Origin: Streptomyces akebiae
GTDB taxonomy: Bacteria > Actinomycetota > Actinomycetes > Streptomycetales > Streptomycetaceae
Length of the DNA stretch: 64,000 nt
Direction: 5' to 3'
Assembly: GCF_019599145.1 (NCBI RefSeq)
Contig: NZ_CP080647.1
Span: 5,518,001 to 5,582,000 of the forward strand
Shown: positions 27,888 through 45,748 of the stretch, piece by piece
How positions within the stretch are numbered: position 1 is the first letter of the stretch
How the letters are laid out: each line of letters opens with the position of its first letter
Translations under genes and position numbers: made by a program
The notes under the pieces: model-generated
What the model was told of the DNA's origin: nothing
Databases searched by the model: none
Seen by the model: only the letters and a program-made list of their open reading frames with translations

Positions 27888-28649
27888 ATGGCCGACGCAC
27901 CGTACAAGCTGATCCTCCTCCGCCACGGCGAGAGCGAGTGGAACGAGAAGAACCTGTTCACCGGCTGGGTGGACGTCAACCTCACTCCGAAGGGCGAGAA
28001 GGAGGCGACGCGCGGCGGTGAGCTGCTGAAGGACGCCGGCCTGCTCCCGGACGTGCTGCACACCTCCCTCCAGCGACGTGCCATCCGCACCGCGCAGCTG
28101 GCCCTGGAATCCGCCGACCGCCACTGGATCCCGGTCCACCGCAGCTGGCGCCTGAACGAGCGCCACTACGGCGCCCTCCAGGGCAAGGACAAGGCCCAGA
28201 CCCTCGCCGAGTTCGGCGAGGAGCAGTTCATGCTGTGGCGCCGCTCGTACGACACCCCGCCGCCCCCGCTCGCGGACGACTCGGAGTTCTCCCAGGCGGC
28301 GGACGCGCGCTACGCGACCATCCCGCCGGAGCTGCGCCCCCGCACCGAGTGCCTCAAGGACGTCGTCACCCGCATGCTGCCGTACTGGTACGACGGCATC
28401 GTCCCCGACCTCCTGGCCGGCCGCACGGTCCTCGTCGCCGCCCACGGCAACTCCCTCCGCGCCCTCGTCAAGCACCTCGACGGCATCTCGGACGCCGACA
28501 TCGCGGGCCTCAACATCCCGACCGGCATCCCCCTCGCCTACGAACTCGACGCCGACTTCAAGCCCCTGAACCCCGGCGGCACCTACCTCGACCCCGAGGC
28601 GGCGGCGGCTGCGATCGAGGCGGTCAAGAACCAGGGCAAGAAGAAGTAA
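27888..28649 (+). CDS. gpmA: 2,3-bisphosphoglycerate-dependent phosphoglycerate mutase
   Basis: 253 residues, full length. It interconverts 3- and 2-phosphoglycerate in glycolysis and gluconeogenesis. [20 protein letters not shown] holds the phospho-accepting His; [20 protein letters not shown] and [18 protein letters not shown] (second catalytic His) are intact. The last codons (NQGKKK and stop) are encoded by the 19-bp sequence repeated at 39935, so the 3' end is the attachment site of an integrated element that restores the reading frame. Downstream of the same gene in other actinobacteria lie the phoU/senX3-regX3 genes, here pushed 14 kb away. Confidence 0.97.
28631..28649 (+). other. attL core (19 bp)
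   Basis: CCAGGGCAAGAAGAAGTAA, the final codons and stop of gpm, identical to 39935-39953. The bases just before it (CAAGAA versus CAAGAC) also match except one. Confidence 0.85.
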
Positions 28650-28714: not shown

Positions 28715-28731
28715 GCCGTCTGTGGGCCGTC
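28715..28731. repeat. 17-bp arm-type repeat, copy 1
   Basis: GCCGTCTGTGGGCCGTC, 66 bp right of the attL core and touching the int stop codon. An identical copy is at 40031-40047 and a one-mismatch copy at 39811-39827. Candidate integrase arm-binding sites. Confidence 0.6.
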
Positions 28732-29974
28732 AGGTGTGGGACGGCTCGGGCCGGGCCGTGTCGAAGACCGCAGCCACGGCCTTGCGCGTGCGCTCCTGGC
28801 TGGACGGCATGAGATGCGCGTACACACGGAGGGTCAGACCGGGGTCGGAGTGACCCAGGTACTCGGCGAGGGCCTTGATGTTCTCGCCAGCGTCCAGGAG
28901 CACCGAGGCATAGAAGTGCCGGAGCGCGTGCATGCCGTTCTCGCGGGACTCGGCGTAGGACTCGCCCGGCTTGCGCTCGGGGATCACCCCGGTCGAGGCC
29001 AGCGCCCGCTTCCACACCTCCTCGTTGAGTGAAGTCCGCCAGACGTGCCCGCCGCGCGGTCCGGTGAAGATCAGCCGCTTGGTCACCGGAGGCCCGTCCG
29101 CCACCTTCCACGGCAAGGTGATCTCGACCGGCGGGAACCGCTTCATGTGTGCCCGGAGCGCATCAGCGACCGGCCCAGGGAGCGGTACGTCCCGCAGCTT
29201 GCCGCCCTTGGGCGGAGCGAACACCGCCTTGCTCCGGCTCAGCTTCAGTTGCTGGACCACGTGAAGCGTGTCCGACTCGAAGTCGATCGCGTCGACAGCG
29301 ACGCCAAGGATCTCCCCCTGGCGGAGCCCGCAGCCGCCACCCAGGTCAACCATGGCTTGGTACCGCTCAGGCATGGCGGCCTGGACGGCGAAGACCCGTT
29401 CAGGCGTCCAGGGAGCGATCCGCTTCACGTCCACCGTCGGCGGCCGGACCGAGCGAGCTGCACACGGATTCCGGGGAAGGTGCCCGTCGTCCACGGCTGC
29501 ACTCAGCGCGGCCCGCACGTTGGAGTAGATCGTCCGGGCATACGAGCCCCGGACGCCGTTCTCTTGCAGCCTCCCGACCCAGTCACGGATGTGAGCAGGC
29601 TGGAAGGAGCCGAGCGGACGTGATCCCAGGTAGGGGAAGGCGTGCAACCGAAGCTGTGACTCCATCGAAGCCTGGGTGTTCGGATCCGGCGCGTGAGTCA
29701 CCCACTTCTCGGCGTACTGCTCGAAGGTGATCCGAGCCGCACGCGGGTCGATGTACTGCCCGCGCGCCATGTCAGCCTCAGTGTGCGCCAGCCACTGATC
29801 AGCGAGCCGCTTCTGCCGGTCGGGGAAGCTCTTGGACTTCTCGGTACCGTCCGGCCCGATGTACCGGGCCCGGTAACGGGACCCAGTGCCGTACCGCTCC
29901 GTCTTGACCTTGCGAGCCTTCCCATCCGGCCCGGTCTCCGTTCTGTACCAGCGGTCTTGGACGTGCCCGGCCAT
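28730..29974 (-). CDS. int: Tyrosine recombinase/integrase of the AICE
   Basis: 414 residues. An N-terminal arm-binding region (VQDRWYRTETGPDGKARKVK) leads to a SAM-like core-binding domain (ITFEQYAEKWVTHAPDPNTQ), then the catalytic domain: Arg in GGCGLRQGEILGVAVD, HxxR in MHALRHFYASVLLDAG, His in AEYLGHSDPG and nucleophile Tyr in TLRVYAHLMPSS. All catalytic residues are present, so the enzyme should be active. ATG 29974 overlaps the xis stop by ATGA, the usual AICE coupling. The stop lies 81 bp from the attL core, the normal position next to attP. Confidence 0.95.
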   Translation of the reverse strand: MAGHVQDRWYRTETGPDGKARKVKTERYGTGSRYRARYIGPDGTEKSKSFPDRQKRLADQWLAHTEADMARGQYIDPRAARITFEQYAEKWVTHAPDPNTQASMESQLRLHAFPYLGSRPLGSFQPAHIRDWVGRLQENGVRGSYARTIYSNVRAALSAAVDDGHLPRNPCAARSVRPPTVDVKRIAPWTPERVFAVQAAMPERYQAMVDLGGGCGLRQGEILGVAVDAIDFESDTLHVVQQLKLSRSKAVFAPPKGGKLRDVPLPGPVADALRAHMKRFPPVEITLPWKVADGPPVTKRLIFTGPRGGHVWRTSLNEEVWKRALASTGVIPERKPGESYAESRENGMHALRHFYASVLLDAGENIKALAEYLGHSDPGLTLRVYAHLMPSSQERTRKAVAAVFDTARPEPSHT

Positions 29975-30210
29975 CAGGCAGCAGCCCCTTCCATCAGGGA
30001 CTCGACCCAGGCCCGGACGTCCACGGGGTCGTAGCGCAGATGCCGGCCAACCCGGAAGCCACGCGGCCCAGTGCGCTTCCGCCGCCACTGGTAGACCGTC
30101 TCGACCGGCACGCCCAGAATCTCGGCAACGTCCAGTGGAGTCAGGAACCGCGAAGGCAGAGCGCGCGGTTCGGCAGCCGCTTCTACGACGGCGAGATGAC
30201 GCTTAGCCAT
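29974..30210 (-). CDS. xis: Excisionase, MerR-like HTH
   Basis: 78 residues. A winged-HTH of the DNA-binding excisionase type: SRFLTPLDVAEILGVPVETV, YQWRRKRTGPRGFRVGRHLR and YDPVDVRAWVESL. With Int it directs excision from the gpm site. ATG 30210 has AAGGAGAG upstream and overlaps the rep stop by 8 bp; the stop overlaps the int start. The frame is open for another 16 codons upstream inside rep. Confidence 0.92.
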   Translation of the reverse strand: MAKRHLAVVEAAAEPRALPSRFLTPLDVAEILGVPVETVYQWRRKRTGPRGFRVGRHLRYDPVDVRAWVESLMEGAAA

Positions 30211-31549
30211 GGGTCGGCTCTCCTTCTGTTCCGGGGGCGGGTTCGAGGGATGCGGCAAGCCAGGCTTCGGTATCGGACAGGCCGGTTCCGGCGAAGACCC
30301 AGTGCGCGAGGACGTACGTCGTGTCGGGCGCCGCTTCGTTGGCCGTTGCAGCTTGGGCGCGGCGCCATTGGGCGCGGGCGTCGCGGAGGGCGCCGAGGGT
30401 GGTGGAGTAGTGGCGGGATTTGGTGGAGAAGTGGCCGCGGAAGCCGAGCATGTGGGCCCAGGCGCGGAGGCGGAGGTGTTCGAGGTCTTTGCGTGCGCCG
30501 AGGGTCCAGGCGGTTCGGATGAGGCGGCGGGCGTGGTCGCTGATGTCGAGCTGGGCGAGCTCGGCGGCGAACTTCAGCGGTCGGTCGAGAGCTCCCGTGG
30601 CTGTCTCGGCGCCCTTGGTCGCGTACTTGGCGATGTACGCGGCCACGGCCCGCTCGGTCAGCTCCTGGCCGTCGTTGAAGTCGGCGGAGCGGATGGTGCG
30701 GACGTCGAGTTGGCGACCGAAGGCGAAGGTGTGGGTGCGTCCATCGATGGCCGGGCCGTCGACACGCACCTTGGCTGCCGCTGCCTCGATGGCGTTGGTG
30801 AGGAGTTCGGCGGTGGCCCAGGCCGGGGGCGGGGTGTCGCCGCCGATGGGGCCGTCGATGCGTATGACGGCGTGGAAGTGGACGGCGCCACGCTTCTGGT
30901 ATTCGGCGACCTTGGCGAAGGAGACGCGGGCGTGGTCGCGGAACCGGCGTTGTGACAGTCCCGCACGCTTGGCGACTTCCCGGCGCAGGTACGTGGAGAA
31001 GCGTCGCCAGAGCGGACCGGCGTGCGCATTCCAGAGAACGGCCGCTTCGTAGTCGTACGTGTCCGGGTCGAGCGAGGTACCGAGTACGGCGTCGTCCTGG
31101 TCGTGGCGGGTGCCGCAGCGGCAGGGGCGCCCGTTGGAAGGGCGGTTGTGGACCGGGCCGAAGCTCGGGGCGGTGAAGGTGGCGAAGACGCGCGGGTGGG
31201 TGGCGACGTGTTCGGGGACGCCCTTGCCGCCGCGCAGGCCGGAGGTGATCAGGTGGAAGGTGTCACGGCGGTAGACCTCGGAGCAGGCCGCGCACCGAGT
31301 CGTACGGCGGTTGTTGCAGCGGACGAGGAGTTGGCCGGCCGGGAGGTCGGTGGAGTCGAGGTGCTGGAGGACGCGGCCGATCTCACCGGTCGTGGTGTCG
31401 ACGTCGTGCTCGGTGCGGTGGCCGTCGAGGCGGATCGGGTTGACGCAGCCGCCGAGGCCGGAGAGCTGACGGAGGATACCGGGCAGGGTGCCGTGCTCGG
31501 CCAGCTTCGCGAGTTCCGGGAGCGGGGGCGGTGTGGTGCGGGTGAAGAT
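30203..31549 (-). CDS. repSA: RepSA-like rolling-circle replication initiator, non-canonical ATC start
   Basis: 448 residues if begun at 31549, close to RepSA of pSAM2. The frame is open without stops from 31661 to 30203. It contains a zinc-finger-like region (VRCNNRRTTRCAACSEVYRR, with CRCGTRHDQ later), an HUH motif in RGAVHFHAVIRIDGP, and the catalytic tyrosine motif AAYIAKYATKGAE. There is no ATG, GTG or TTG before 30769, and starting there would delete HUH. AGAAGGAGA on the minus strand lies seven bases before an ATC codon at 31549-31547, exactly where ATG is expected. Either AUC initiates weakly or an ATG was lost. It lies 91 bp after spdD and overlaps xis. Confidence 0.8.
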   Translation of the reverse strand: MFTRTTPPPLPELAKLAEHGTLPGILRQLSGLGGCVNPIRLDGHRTEHDVDTTTGEIGRVLQHLDSTDLPAGQLLVRCNNRRTTRCAACSEVYRRDTFHLITSGLRGGKGVPEHVATHPRVFATFTAPSFGPVHNRPSNGRPCRCGTRHDQDDAVLGTSLDPDTYDYEAAVLWNAHAGPLWRRFSTYLRREVAKRAGLSQRRFRDHARVSFAKVAEYQKRGAVHFHAVIRIDGPIGGDTPPPAWATAELLTNAIEAAAAKVRVDGPAIDGRTHTFAFGRQLDVRTIRSADFNDGQELTERAVAAYIAKYATKGAETATGALDRPLKFAAELAQLDISDHARRLIRTAWTLGARKDLEHLRLRAWAHMLGFRGHFSTKSRHYSTTLGALRDARAQWRRAQAATANEAAPDTTYVLAHWVFAGTGLSDTEAWLAASLEPAPGTEGEPTHG

Positions 31550-33264: not shown

Positions 33265-34641
33265 TCAGTCGGTCACCGGGCGCGGCTGCACCGCCGGGGC
33301 CGAAGACTCGACGGGCCGCACGGGGGTGTCGGGCTGGAAGGGCTTGAGCGCGGGAAGGTCGGGCACCAGATGGGCCGCATCCCGGCAGATCTCGGCGGCG
33401 GCGCCGAGGGAGAGGTACGGCGTGCGGATGCGGGACCAGCCGCCGGAGGTGTCACCGGCCACAGCCAGGCCGGGCAGTTCGGGAGCGATAGCACAGGCAG
33501 CGGAGACCGCTTCGGGGGCGATGTCGCCGAGGGCCATCTTCGCGGAGGCTTCGTCGTTGACGCGGTGGCAGACCCGGCCGGTGAGCTGAGCGCGGAGCAT
33601 GGTGGCGCCCTTGCCCAGCTCGGCGCCGAAGCGCTGACCGCAGACCTCCAGGTAGATCCCGGCGGCCCGGCCGAGCTGGGCGAGGCGGATGAGCTGAGTG
33701 ACCATCTCGTCCCGCCGTTCCTCGTCCTTCTTCGTGGCGACGAGGAAGAGTTCGGCAATCTCGTCGACGAACAGCACGATCGGCACCGGGCGTTCGCTGT
33801 CGGGCAGGCCCCAGATGTCGGAGGTGATCTCCTCGTCCGGGGTGCCCGGTGCGATGCCCTGCCGGGCCTTGATCAGGTCGTATCGGTCCTCCATTTCCTT
33901 GACGAGCGCGGGCAGCAGCTCGGCAGCTTCGTCGGGATCGGTGGCGAGGGCGGAGAGCCGGGAGGCGAACGGCGCCAGCTCCACACCGCGCTTGCAGTCG
34001 ATGCCGACCAGTGCGACGGGCTGCCGGGCGAGTCCGGTGATCAGGTGGCGCAGGTACATGGACTTCCCCGACAGCGTGGCGCCGAGGGTGAGCTGATGCG
34101 GAATGGTGCGGTAATCGCGCACGAAGGGAGTCGCGTCCTCCCTCAGTGCCACGGGCACCTTGAGGAGTTCGGCGTTGGCCTTGCGAGGCATCCGCACGTT
34201 CCGCAGCACGTCGAAGCCGACGAGGCGCAGTTCGACCAAGCCCGGCTTGACCGTCGTCACGTAGACGGCGTGCACGCCCCAGGCATGCCGCAGCCGCTCG
34301 GCCGAGGCGGCGACGTCCGCCGGTTCCTGGCCCGGAGCGAGCCGGAGCCGGAGCCGCAGCCCGGTCGAGGTGGGCCGGATGATGCCCCGACGCGGCGGTA
34401 CCGGCCGGACCTCCCGCCGAGTGGTGGCCTTGACGGCGAGGACCCGCAGCCGGGACGGCGCCACGGTCAGCCCGCATGCCTCCATGACCGAGCCGTAGGA
34501 GCCGAGGAGCCGGGCGGTGGATATCGGCAGGCCGACCGTGGGCCAGTACACGCGGGGGTGCTTGGCCCGGGTGTAGGCGGCCCCGCCACCGAGTGCGGCG
34601 ACAGGACCACCCACCTCCAGAAGTGTCACCAGATCGGACAT
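33265..34641 (-). CDS. traSA: FtsK/SpoIIIE-type DNA translocase, TraSA-like
   Basis: 458 residues. A short N-terminal hydrophobic segment (VTLLEVGGPVAALGGGAAY), then the motor: Walker A in LTLGATLSGKSMYLRHL, Walker B in VPIVLFVDEIAELFLVATKK, and QLIRLAQLGRAAGIYLEVCG with the sensor region of FtsK-like proteins. In pSAM2-type elements this single protein moves double-stranded DNA between mycelia. ATG 34641 overlaps the upstream stop (ATGA). The Pro/Val tail is variable in the family. Confidence 0.92.
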   Translation of the reverse strand: MSDLVTLLEVGGPVAALGGGAAYTRAKHPRVYWPTVGLPISTARLLGSYGSVMEACGLTVAPSRLRVLAVKATTRREVRPVPPRRGIIRPTSTGLRLRLRLAPGQEPADVAASAERLRHAWGVHAVYVTTVKPGLVELRLVGFDVLRNVRMPRKANAELLKVPVALREDATPFVRDYRTIPHQLTLGATLSGKSMYLRHLITGLARQPVALVGIDCKRGVELAPFASRLSALATDPDEAAELLPALVKEMEDRYDLIKARQGIAPGTPDEEITSDIWGLPDSERPVPIVLFVDEIAELFLVATKKDEERRDEMVTQLIRLAQLGRAAGIYLEVCGQRFGAELGKGATMLRAQLTGRVCHRVNDEASAKMALGDIAPEAVSAACAIAPELPGLAVAGDTSGGWSRIRTPYLSLGAAAEICRDAAHLVPDLPALKPFQPDTPVRPVESSAPAVQPRPVTD

Positions 34642-34997
34642 CAGGCGGTTGCTCCCATGGCGGCCGGGAAGGCGGCCGGAGTCACGGCGGCGGCGCGGAA
34701 GGCGATGCCGTGGCGCTGCTGGCCGTTGAACACCGACTCCCACGGCCGGGCGACCAGCCCCGGCAGCGAGACCGGCGCCCCCAGTGCCAGCCCTTCGGAC
34801 ACACCGCCTTCCGGCACGGTGACCTTGACCAGCGACGACTCCCCGTCCTCGATGTAGACGACGCCGATCGTCATCAGCGCTTCCCCGCTGACGGCGTCCT
34901 TGGCGATCTCGCCCGTCTGCCGGTCCCGGACCTTGGGCTCAGGAGCCTCGGTCAGCAGGATCGTGGCGGCTGAGGTCTCAACACGAATGGTGCGCAA
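34641..34997 (-). CDS. SCO3933-family regulatory protein
   Basis: 118 residues, RTIRVETSAATILLTEAPEP at the start and LVARPWESVFNGQQRHGIAF near the end, the pattern of the SCO3933 family that precedes tra genes in AICEs. It starts at TTG 34997; no in-frame ATG or GTG fits the family N-terminus. The leader holds an ACTCGTCTA site (35014). It is the first gene of the leftward transfer/replication unit and is translationally coupled to tra. Confidence 0.8.
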   Translation of the reverse strand: MRTIRVETSAATILLTEAPEPKVRDRQTGEIAKDAVSGEALMTIGVVYIEDGESSLVKVTVPEGGVSEGLALGAPVSLPGLVARPWESVFNGQQRHGIAFRAAAVTPAAFPAAMGATA

Positions 34998-37642: not shown

Positions 37643-37776
37643 ATCCACCGACCTCACGTTTTGCCTACCAGGCGTCTAAGAAGTCGCAACACCGGCTGAT
37701 CCGAGAGAAGATGAGAACTGGGCCGGGCCTCCACCTGTGACGAGTCGGATCGCACCAATGCATTCTGGGAGGCGTA

Positions 37777-38760
37777 GTGAAGCTCGAATCAGCGGTCGAA
37801 CTGAAGGACAAGCTGCTTGAGGACTTCCGGCTCGAGGAACCGGTAGTAGCGCGGTTGGGGCGACGACTCTGTGTCGCGGCTGCGGCCGAAAGGCCGTCGC
37901 CAATGCACGTAGCCTCGTTCCCCGATACCGGGGGTTTCGGGATCGGGGTGGCCGTCCTGAAGCCTGGAAAGTACGGCATAGCAGTGCGGGTGCAATCCGT
38001 CACACCACGCACACATACCCTAGCCGCGCGGATCAGGAAAGAGGCTCACGACGAGGTCGATGTCCAGTTCATCGGTCGAGTGAACGCTTGCGTAGCTTCG
38101 TTGAGACCTGGCGTCTCAATCGGTCATGGGCTCGTCACTGCGGGTACGCTCGGGGCTTTCGTGACCCTGAGGGATCAACCTGGCGACCATGTGTTGTCGA
38201 ACAATCACGTTCTTGCGGCGTGCGACTTGGGTAACATCGGTGACTCAATTCTGCACCCAGGAACGAAAGATGGGTCGCCAGCTGCCCCGTGCACTCGCAT
38301 TGGATCTCTCTCCGAGGTCGAGAAACTCCGAGCCCATCGCGCGGCCTCCAACATCATGGATGCAGCCACTTGTCGATTGGACGATGACGTCCAATTCGAA
38401 CCCAGCCCGCCCCATCTGCGGGGGGTGGCCCCGCTAGCTCTTGATGTGCCGGTGGAGAAGTTGGGTAAAGCAACTAACCACACGACCGGGATGGTGAGAG
38501 CTATCGTTGATGACGTATGGGTCGAGTATGAGGGCGGCAATGCGTACCGCTTCGACGGGCAGTTTGAAGTCGAAGGGGATGGAGTTGATCCTTTCTGTTC
38601 GGATGGCGACAGTGGCGCGATTGTGTGGCACTCTGGTACCTCCGACGCCGTGGGGCTCCTTTTCGCGCGCAGTGCGAGTGGCGGCCACAATGGAATGGGC
38701 GTCACATACGTGAACCCCCTCGAGCCGGTACTGAGCCGGTTCGGAGCGACGCTATCTTGA
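37777..38760 (+). CDS. Trypsin-like serine protease, NAL1-like
   Basis: 327 residues, no signal peptide. The C-terminal 220 residues are a trypsin-fold protease: VSIGHGLVTAGTLGAFV, catalytic His144 in VLSNNHVLAACDLGNIGD, likely Asp195 in SNIMDAATCRLDDD and Ser279 in PFCSDGDSGAIVW. The VTAGTLG-SNNHVLA-GDSGA layout is that of NAL1-like peptidases of bacteria and plants. Residues about 53-105 (GFGIGVAVLKPGKYGIAVRV to FIGRVNA) form a small alpha/beta domain that resembles the whole protein encoded next. GTG 37777 has GGGAGG upstream. GC content is lower than in the surroundings. A cytosolic conflict or immunity role is plausible but unproven. Confidence 0.8.
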   Translation: MKLESAVELKDKLLEDFRLEEPVVARLGRRLCVAAAAERPSPMHVASFPDTGGFGIGVAVLKPGKYGIAVRVQSVTPRTHTLAARIRKEAHDEVDVQFIGRVNACVASLRPGVSIGHGLVTAGTLGAFVTLRDQPGDHVLSNNHVLAACDLGNIGDSILHPGTKDGSPAAPCTRIGSLSEVEKLRAHRAASNIMDAATCRLDDDVQFEPSPPHLRGVAPLALDVPVEKLGKATNHTTGMVRAIVDDVWVEYEGGNAYRFDGQFEVEGDGVDPFCSDGDSGAIVWHSGTSDAVGLLFARSASGGHNGMGVTYVNPLEPVLSRFGATLS

Positions 38761-38776
38761 TTAGCAAGGAGAAAAC

Positions 38777-39004
38777 ATGACCGACCTGCAGACGGTGCGA
38801 GCTGCGCAGCAGGATCTTGCGGCGTACCTGGCTACCGATCGTCGAGTGAATGGGGTCGGTATCACAAGCGGCACAGACGGTTACGCGATCAAGGTCAACG
38901 TTGTGAGCGCTCAGGACCGGCCAGATCTGCCGACGGTATTCAAGGGCGTGCCTGTCGAAGTGGCCGTTGTCGGAAAGATCAAAGCTGTCGGCTCTCGAAG
39001 CTAG
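38777..39004 (+). CDS. 75-residue partner of the protease, stand-alone copy of its N-terminal domain
   Basis: A helix (LQTVRAAQQDLAAYLATDRR) followed by VNGVGITSGTDGYAIKVNVV, then LPTVFKGVPVEVAVVGKIKA. The G-V/I-G-I...Y-A-I-K-V-N-V...G-V-P-V-E-V...G-K-I-x-A pattern parallels residues 53-105 of the upstream protease. In NAL1-like proteases a domain with this GVGI-x-IKV pattern is usually fused. It begins 17 bp after the protease stop with AAGGAG upstream, clearly one operon. Possible inhibitor, substrate adaptor or sensor. Its 3' end overlaps the next convergent gene by 26 bp. Confidence 0.75.
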   Translation: MTDLQTVRAAQQDLAAYLATDRRVNGVGITSGTDGYAIKVNVVSAQDRPDLPTVFKGVPVEVAVVGKIKAVGSRS

Positions 39005-39827: not shown

Positions 39828-39934
39828 CGAGGCCGCTCAACAGTGGCCAAGGACGACCAACGACGACCACTCGGCGCTCGAGCCCACCGTCCCTGACCAG
39901 CAAAAACCCAGCTCACCAAGATCCCCGACAAGAC

Positions 39935-39953
39935 CCAGGGCAAGAAGAAGTAA
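39935..39953 (+). other. attR core (19 bp)
   Basis: Second copy of CCAGGGCAAGAAGAAGTAA, a displaced end of gpm with its stop codon. It is followed by a tandem duplication of GAAGTAACCCCACA (39947-39960 and 39961-39974). Confidence 0.85.
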
Positions 39954-42291: not shown

Positions 42292-42383
42292 GGTCCCTCC
42301 TCGAAGGGATGGAAGGCGAAGCACGGAAGGCAGAGCACGGACACGCATGCGGACAATGCGGTGCCGACACGCAGTGCAGACAG

Positions 42384-42422
42384 CGCCGACACGCAGCGCC
42401 GACACGCAGCGCCGACACGCAG
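42384..42422. repeat. 13-bp tandem repeats upstream of cysteine-rich peptide gene
   Basis: GCCGACACGCAGC repeated at 42384 and 42397, with a near copy at 42410 and a diverged unit before 42384. The gene-free stretch 42292-42621 shows nothing else. Confidence 0.8.
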
Positions 42423-42621
42423 TGCAGAGGAGCAGTGCGGAGTCGAGCATCGAAAGCCTGGTGCCCGTGCCCGTTGATTGCCCCATTCCAAGCCCGTTCA
42501 GCCGGGCGCATCAACGGCGCATGGAGGCGCCCACACGCCCCGCCCGACCAACGAGCGCCGGATCCACGCCACCAGAGCCCGCGCGCACCCCGGCCCCGCG
42601 CGCCCCGCCCCTAGGCCGCAC

Positions 42622-45614: not shown

Positions 45615-45655
45615 GCCGCAGGCCGAGGGCCGCGGACCGACGGACGGATCCCCCA

Positions 45656-45710
45656 TGTACGCCGAAGGGCGGCACCCCCTCTCAGGGGGTGCCGCCCTTC
45701 GGCGTACATA
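45656..45710. terminator. Very strong bidirectional terminator
   Basis: A perfect 25-bp stem (45656-45680 with 45686-45710) around loop TCTCA, 42 bp after phoP and 39 bp from the stop of the convergent lipoprotein gene. Confidence 0.9.
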
Positions 45711-45748
45711 GGCGTCGGGCCTCGGTGGCCCGGTGACCCTCGGCGGCC

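What the first reader, a model, noticed from the sequence alone, without database searches (positions are those of the whole stretch)
37777..39004. NAL1-like protease paired with a free copy of its own N-terminal domain
Protease residues 53-105 and the 75-residue downstream protein share a G-I/V-G-I...Y-A-I-K/R-V...G-K/R-I/V-x-A pattern. The genes are 17 bp apart, lower in GC than their surroundings, carried as cargo on a mobile element, and the protease has an intact H144-D195-S279 triad without a signal peptide. A cytosolic trypsin-like protease with a detachable domain could be a defence or conflict module in which the small protein restrains, senses for, or targets the protease. This is my best candidate for an undescribed system.
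Basis: partly seen in the sequence, partly recalled or inferred. Interest (0 to 1): 0.75.

Follow-up and report, generated by a model that had tools for sequence, protein, structure and literature searches.

The report
Protease with free prodomain-like partner
A bacterial protease related to the rice yield protein NAL1 is encoded next to a tiny protein that is a free copy of the protease's own front domain, and this two-gene pair recurs in several bacterial phyla, so the tiny protein is probably a built-in regulator that can now be tested.

Summary
The 75-aa protein is homologous to the protease's N-domain (residues 1-108): BLASTP sees nothing, profile-profile comparison gives 95.9%, E 6e-9, controls nil. 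Among the 80 best protease loci a free copy lies directly downstream in 75, in about nine phyla by title; in an even class sample, in or near 8 of 30 loci, one family accounting for 16 of the 22 without. A second lineage has it upstream, with BLASTP to its own protease's N-domain down to 4e-12. Trees are partly mirrored. AlphaFold gives similar element order; nearest folds, weakly, are rice NAL1 and the alpha-lytic protease pro region. The triad is invariant in 81 rows. Best reading: trans-acting, propeptide-like inhibitor or folding subunit; binding is not shown. Defence remains possible: mobile carriage, one Abi_C neighbour, two mycobacteriophages with the free domain and no protease found. 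Against: no PADLOC match, core-chromosome setting in one family.

The parts
37777..38760 (+). NAL1-like trypsin-fold serine protease, 327 aa, GTG start, GGGAGG at 37767-37772
37777..38100 (+). N-terminal domain of the protease (residues 1-108), homologous to the small protein
   Evidence: hhalign 95.9% probability, E 6e-9; similar order of elements in the L019 model
38206..38208 (+). codon of catalytic His144
   Evidence: 81 of 81 aligned proteases
38359..38361 (+). codon of catalytic Asp195
   Evidence: 81 of 81 aligned proteases
38611..38613 (+). codon of catalytic Ser279 in G-D-S-G
   Evidence: 81 of 81 aligned proteases
38766..38771 (+). AAGGAG, Shine-Dalgarno-like, 5 nt before the small gene
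   Evidence: read from the sequence
38777..39004 (+). 75-aa free copy of the N-domain (propeptide-like small protein)
   Evidence: homologs directly downstream of the protease in 75 of the 80 best loci
28625..28649 (.). left direct repeat (attachment-site-like), at the 3' end of a host gene ending KNQGKKK
39929..39953 (.). right direct repeat, 24 of 25 identical
28730..30088 (-). tyrosine integrase of the carrying element (ORF as listed; true start may be shorter)
   Evidence: PF00589 E 1.5e-13
33265..34743 (-). FtsK/SpoIIIE-type transfer protein of the element
   Evidence: PF01580 E 5e-35
30203..30769 (-). RepSA replication initiator, C-terminal part only in this ORF
   Evidence: PF20199 model positions 260-436 of 438

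Best explanation
The two genes are a conserved module: a NAL1-like serine protease, probably cytosolic, that keeps a prodomain-like N-domain in cis, plus a free copy of that domain made from the next gene. SHOWN by computation: homology of the free protein to the N-domain; recurrent linkage over about nine phyla; correlated divergence; similar order of secondary structure; an intact triad. INFERRED: the free copy binds the cognate protease in trans and works as a propeptide-like regulator, most likely holding the protease in check and/or helping it fold, as the alpha-lytic protease pro region and stand-alone subtilisin and cathepsin propeptide-like proteins do for their enzymes. A second start site with a good ribosome site would let the cell make regulator and enzyme from one message; a signal that removes or displaces the free domain would release activity. 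Which signal and which substrate are unknown.
Confidence: 0.5

Rival explanations
1. Oligomer or allosteric subunit: the free domain pairs with N-domains of the protease assembly (like with like) and changes assembly or substrate access, without touching the active site.
For: Free and fused copies have a similar order of elements, and like domains often pair; rice NAL1 keeps its N-domain in solved structures, so that domain does not simply come off. That NAL1 forms rings is recalled, from no call.
Against: No interface was predicted with confidence. The window-type N-domain has drifted from the P..VDGVPV-like motif that the free copies keep (consensus lines), so like-with-like pairing is not obvious.
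Confidence: 0.2
2. Substrate adaptor or degradation tag: the free domain binds client proteins, or mimics a substrate, and docks them through the N-domain.
For: One genome has the domain fused to a DUF3221 protein, with no match to the protease alignment in that genome (L100), so the domain can travel alone.
Against: Most free copies are short and end soon after the last strand, with little room for a client-binding part. Fusions to clients were not searched for systematically.
Confidence: 0.13
3. Defence module: the protease is an immune effector, the free domain its antidote, and phages or mobile elements carry the pair or the antidote alone.
For: Element cargo in the window; Prim-Pol, GntR and NUDIX genes near the G275 copy and an integrase near the G068 copy; Abi_C gene 204 nt upstream in Streptomyces sp. 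R302; sparse in the genus: 2 of 392 sampled genomes, own included, at E 1e-30; free copies in phages Myrna and Phabba with no protease found in either record. A more distant relative is fused to Endonuclease_NS (L237), an arrangement like the trypsin-NucA systems of Kaur 2020 (PMC7159879, passages).
Against: No PADLOC match for the window pair or 7 proteins of relatives. In Geodermatophilaceae the pair lies between rpsL/fusA and rpoC (L028), with an rpoC-like cluster in 13 loci: a vertical, housekeeping-like place. The empty phage search had no positive control. Defence islands were not surveyed.
Confidence: 0.15
4. Duplication by-product: the small gene is kept by linkage and has no role tied to the protease.
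For: Absent while the protease stays in one family.
Against: Kept next to the protease in about nine phyla, retained unlinked in G904 and G1050; conserved G-x-G and GV-x-V positions.
Confidence: 0.02

Closest known systems
Rice NARROW LEAF 1 (NAL1) protease, Pfam Nal1_C and NAL1_N
   Different: About 17% identity; the window protein is below Pfam's Nal1_C cut-off (12.2 of 26.1 bits). No free N-domain copy for NAL1 showed in the paper listings.
Alpha-lytic protease and its pro region (Pro_Al_protease, PF02983)
   Different: There the pro region is the N-terminal part of one precursor chain (PMC2829044, passages); here the copy is a separate gene, the protease has no evident signal peptide, and sequence gives almost no link.
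Stand-alone propeptide-like inhibitors (SUB1-ProM; CTLA-2alpha, crammer)
   Same: A free homolog of a protease prodomain; SUB1-ProM is also encoded beside subtilase genes and inhibits one of them (PMC6993865, abstract; CTLA-2alpha and crammer from the listing).
   Different: Those act on a subtilase and on cysteine proteases; no member for a NAL1-type protease was met. Inhibition is untested here.
Trypco1/Trypco2 (trypsin-co-occurring domains)
   Same: Small-domain genes that neighbour trypsin-like peptidases (PMC7159879, passages).
   Different: No Pfam family of that name matched any of 48 small proteins at E 1. Whether vWA-MoxR-VMAP genes lie nearby was not tested.
Nuclease-protease pairs in antiphage systems
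   Same: Trypsin-like protease paired with a partner gene (PMC12799240, passages).
   Different: The partner there is a proenzyme nuclease; here it is a copy of the protease's own domain.

Membership tests
NAL1-type protease | His-Asp-Ser triad in a trypsin fold | tested here: met
   H144/D195/S279 in 81 of 81 rows; fold from the L019 model against NAL1 and alpha-lytic protease
NAL1-type protease | Sequence relation to NAL1 | tested here: met
   Family profile A1 against NAL1 chains, E 2.2e-11; single-sequence search only E 0.027
NAL1-type protease | Pfam Nal1_C above its cut-off in the window protein | tested here: not met
   12.2 bits, cut-off 26.1; relative L228 passes with 27.0
NAL1_N domain (PF25608) | Pfam model above its cut-off | tested here: not met
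   No match for the window protease or small protein; upstream-type small proteins 19.5 and 19.6 bits, cut-off 27; proteases L005 (28.6) and L235 (41.5) pass, L009 (24.3) and L232 (22.4) do not
NAL1_N domain (PF25608) | Same fold as the N-domain of NAL1 (from residue 90) | tested here: inconclusive
Alpha-lytic prodomain (PF02983) | Sequence membership | tested here: not met
   No Pfam match in 48 members; hhalign probability 3.65% against 29 prodomains
Alpha-lytic prodomain (PF02983) | Fold of the pro region | tested here: inconclusive
Stand-alone propeptide-like inhibitor | Free homolog of the protease's own N-terminal domain | tested here: met
Stand-alone propeptide-like inhibitor | Inhibits the cognate protease | not testable with these tools
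   needs an enzyme assay
Trypco1/Trypco2 | Recognised by a profile of that family | tested here: inconclusive
   Pfam scan of 48 members gave only 9 families, each in a single member at E 0.03 or worse, none of that name; that Pfam holds these families is recalled
Trypco1/Trypco2 | Neighbour of vWA-MoxR-VMAP type systems | not tested
   neighbours were named only for a few loci
Known anti-phage system (PADLOC) | Profile match | tested here: not met
   0 matches for the window pair and for 7 proteins of relatives

The most novel reading that the evidence does not exclude
NAL1-like proteases are an immune or stress effector class held by a free copy of their own prodomain-like domain, and phages such as Myrna and Phabba have taken the free domain alone as an anti-protease; the fused N-domain of plant NAL1 descends from the same regulatory domain.
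Probability: 0.15. Interest if true: 0.88.

Novelty: new variant of a known kind. Interest (0 to 1): 0.68.

Why it matters
It gives a widespread two-gene module, without a name in the sources seen, in which a protease is paired with a split-off copy of its own domain; it occurs in about nine phyla, and of 120 listed database relatives of the small protein (333 found) nearly all are 'hypothetical' or unnamed. It makes the function of the NAL1 N-domain, in a protease family tied to rice yield (recalled), directly testable in simple bacterial proteins, and it would extend the idea of free propeptide-like regulators, known for subtilases and cathepsins, to NAL1-type trypsin-fold proteases. Phage-borne copies without a detected protease offer a ready test for a natural inhibitor.

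Tried and rejected
Rejected: 'the pair is unique to this mobile element' (80 loci). Rejected: 'the small protein belongs to a known Pfam, NCBIfam, PADLOC or PDB-sequence family' (the NCBIfam hit of the protease to a sulfurtransferase model, E 0.0076 but 15.4 bits against a cut-off of 250, and homoserine dehydrogenase at E 0.023 for the small family, are taken as chance). Rejected: a firm sequence link to alpha-lytic prodomains, though its score lies a little above the permuted versions. Rejected as proof: the fused-chain model as evidence of docking. Led nowhere: single-sequence search with the small protein (only itself); Pfam NAL1_N over 246 genomes (1 hit); tblastn of the two window proteins against phages (none); promoter/terminator scan (at chance); PHROGs (the protease matches a phage protease family, the small protein nothing better than E 0.09); paper searches for NAL1 structures and for Pfam names (unrelated papers). 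No structure paper of NAL1 was read; ring assembly is recalled. A neighbour survey by crude gene calling showed neighbours shared within families; I saw none shared across phyla, but did not test that formally, and those gene calls are rough in high-GC DNA.

Genome searches score a limited number of first-look candidates. One search left out N-terminal pieces under 80 aa and small proteins of 90 aa or more. A1 has the query and 27 of 120 listed proteins; A2 48 rows, A3 92, A4 76. The tree used 25 of the 80 loci plus the window, four upstream pairs, one plasmid pair and two phage proteins. One search used 66 pairs present in all three alignments. One of 30 prodomain pieces held a stop and was left out.

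Full report
WHAT IS THERE. The window holds a 327-aa serine protease (37777-38760, +) and, 16 nt on, a 75-aa protein (38777-39004, +), each with a Shine-Dalgarno-like stretch. The pair has 59.8% GC in a 70.1% window. It lies inside an integrated element of about 11.3 kb: integrase, HTH_17, RepSA, DUF2637, FtsK, GntR-UTRA, NUDIX and a HATPase gene, between direct repeats at 28625-28649 and 39929-39953, 24 of 25 identical. The left repeat is the end of an ORF ending KNQGKKK, which I take from memory to be a phosphoglycerate mutase. This is the layout of an actinomycete integrative and conjugative element (name recalled). The nearest named relatives of the protease are from Streptomyces.

IS THE RESEMBLANCE REAL. 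BLASTP of the two window proteins finds nothing significant (best E 0.71). With families it is clear: 74 small proteins against 75 protease N-terminal regions give hhalign probability 95.87%, E 6.2e-9 over 73 columns, while 20 column-permuted alignments, the reversed one and the C-terminal part stay under 1%. The match includes the first helix, so the homologous region is residues 1-108. In relatives no profile is needed: in four upstream-arranged loci BLASTP of the small protein to its own protease's N-domain gives 2.8e-11 (L005), 3.6e-12 (L009), 6.4e-7 (L232) and 5e-7 (L234), while the fifth pair tried, the divergent L235, gave no match; a Rubrobacter plasmid pair gives 1e-5.

IS THE LINKAGE CONSERVED. 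A profile from ten small proteins (nine from these loci, one from the window) finds a relative directly downstream, same strand, starting within 312 nt of the protease match, in 75 of 80 loci, i.e. in 66 of the 71 loci that gave no seed; L057 and L083 have it 2.4 and 7.0 kb away; L056, L067 and L085 have none in the stretch held. By record titles the loci with the pair come from Actinomycetota, Chloroflexi, Acidobacteria, Planctomycetes (Gemmataceae, Isosphaeraceae), Gemmatimonadetes, Hydrogenedentota, Rokubacteria, Alphaproteobacteria and one MAG titled Akkermansia (ranks recalled). These are best matches, not an even sample. Even samples tell more soberly. Of 394 genomes of the class, 30 have a match at E 1e-10 or better; of the 30 loci, 5 have the small gene downstream (the window's own among them), 2 upstream (weak, E 0.009 and 0.001), 1 on the other strand, and 22 have none within the stretch held. 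Sixteen of those 22 belong to one family, f21; by eye the L211 protein reads as the Jiangella endophytica record P0013. A whole-genome search found no free copy in those 16 genomes except one E 0.008 fragment, none in the genomes of L056 and L067, and an unlinked copy in G904 and in the genome of L085. Of 100 relatives, 12 have a match at E 1e-3; of the 13 loci fetched (two from one genome) the window's, L002, L005 and L009 have a free copy beside the protease, and L012 shows only its own N-terminus. Starting from the small protein, 6 of 296 phylum genomes, own included, have a hit; 5 lie next to a protease, and the sixth (L100) is a DUF3221 fusion in a genome without a match to the protease alignment. 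Within the genus, 2 of 392 genomes, own included, hold a protease at E 1e-30 or better; the second, G275, also has the small gene downstream (L094).

HISTORY. In a 64-row tree the 26 window-type N-domains form one clade (100/100); on the other side lie all free copies together with the 5 upstream-type and plasmid N-domains. Several subgroups are mirrored between N-domains and free copies (for instance L019-L032; L016-L017-L072; L027-L055-L080, joined there by L029), and the two phage copies group together among free copies (few columns, bootstrap not settled, root only at the midpoint). The number and order of duplications are therefore open. Pairwise distances of free copies and protease cores correlate (r 0.76 in 66 pairs, 0.60 in 19 mostly non-actinobacterial pairs; 0 of 5000 permutations as high). 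Species history is not removed from that number. The simplest reading is old duplication and joint descent.

PHAGES. A structure search of viral proteins puts Mycobacterium phages Myrna and Phabba first (TM 0.80 and 0.77). tblastn with the L022 small protein finds Phabba at E 4e-3. The small-family profile scores Myrna gp20 and Phabba gp24 at 1e-17 and 5e-18 in a nine-sequence set. A search of both whole records with the protease alignment found nothing, with no positive control. Viral contigs do hold more distant NAL1-like proteases, 115 relatives of which 80 were kept; 3 of those 80 loci give a small-family hit, one of them the protease's own N-terminus.

SETTING. In Geodermatophilaceae (L028; family recalled) the pair lies between rpsL/fusA and rpoC; clusters that I read as rpoC and L2 occur in 13 and 12 loci. 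In the window's own genus and order it looks mobile: Prim-Pol, GntR and NUDIX genes near the G275 copy, an integrase near the G068 copy, an Abi_C gene 204 nt upstream in Streptomyces sp. R302. PADLOC gives nothing.

MECHANISM. Best reading: the free domain is a trans-acting, propeptide-like regulator of the protease next to it, inhibitor and/or folding helper. In alpha-lytic protease the pro region joins a protease hairpin in a larger sheet and speeds folding (PMC2829044, passages); SUB1-ProM shows that a free propeptide-like protein beside subtilase genes can be a potent inhibitor (PMC6993865, abstract). Homology, linkage and correlated divergence are shown; binding and effect are inferred. 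Rivals are an oligomer subunit, an adaptor, and a defence antidote.

NOVELTY. Paper listings for NAL1 proteases, Pfam names and trypsin partners showed no description of this pair; the library lacks most subscription journals. Free propeptide-like proteins are a known kind; one for NAL1-type proteases, conserved as a two-gene module, is a new variant.

Noticed in passing
L255:4986-5231 and L254:4923-5216: Mycobacteriophages Myrna gp20 and Phabba gp24 are free copies of the small domain without a detected NAL1-like protease in the phage; a VWA-like protein (E 7e-4, below cut-off) is encoded three genes upstream in Phabba.
   Followed up: partly
L020:6909-7796: Abi_C (abortive infection C-terminus) gene 204 nt upstream of the protease in Streptomyces sp. 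R302.
   Followed up: partly
window 30203-30769: The RepSA match of this ORF covers only model positions 260-436 of 438, so the element's replication gene looks incomplete or interrupted.
   Followed up: no
L237:667-2838 (also plasmid hits H5-H7 and H9): A NAL1-like protease is fused to an Endonuclease_NS (NucA-type) domain; similar plasmid proteins are annotated as DNA/RNA non-specific endonuclease.
   Followed up: no
L100:1072-1701: The small domain is fused to a DUF3221 protein in a genome with no match to the protease alignment.
   Followed up: partly
BFVD hits A0A2U7UEZ3, S4VUU6, A0A2U7UDG0: Uncharacterised Pandoravirus proteins have a similar predicted fold (TM to query 0.51-0.64); not tested by sequence.
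   Followed up: no
HE681887 10511-10744: An archaeal virus (Alphaspiravirus, Aeropyrum) protein annotated as putative serine protease matches the upstream-type small protein at E 1e-3.
   Followed up: no
window 42358-42428: Short direct repeats, spacing 22, 13 and 13 nt, with core GCCGACACGCAG.
   Followed up: no
window 45652-45712: Long near-perfect hairpin, 29-nt arms with 3 nt between them.
   Followed up: no
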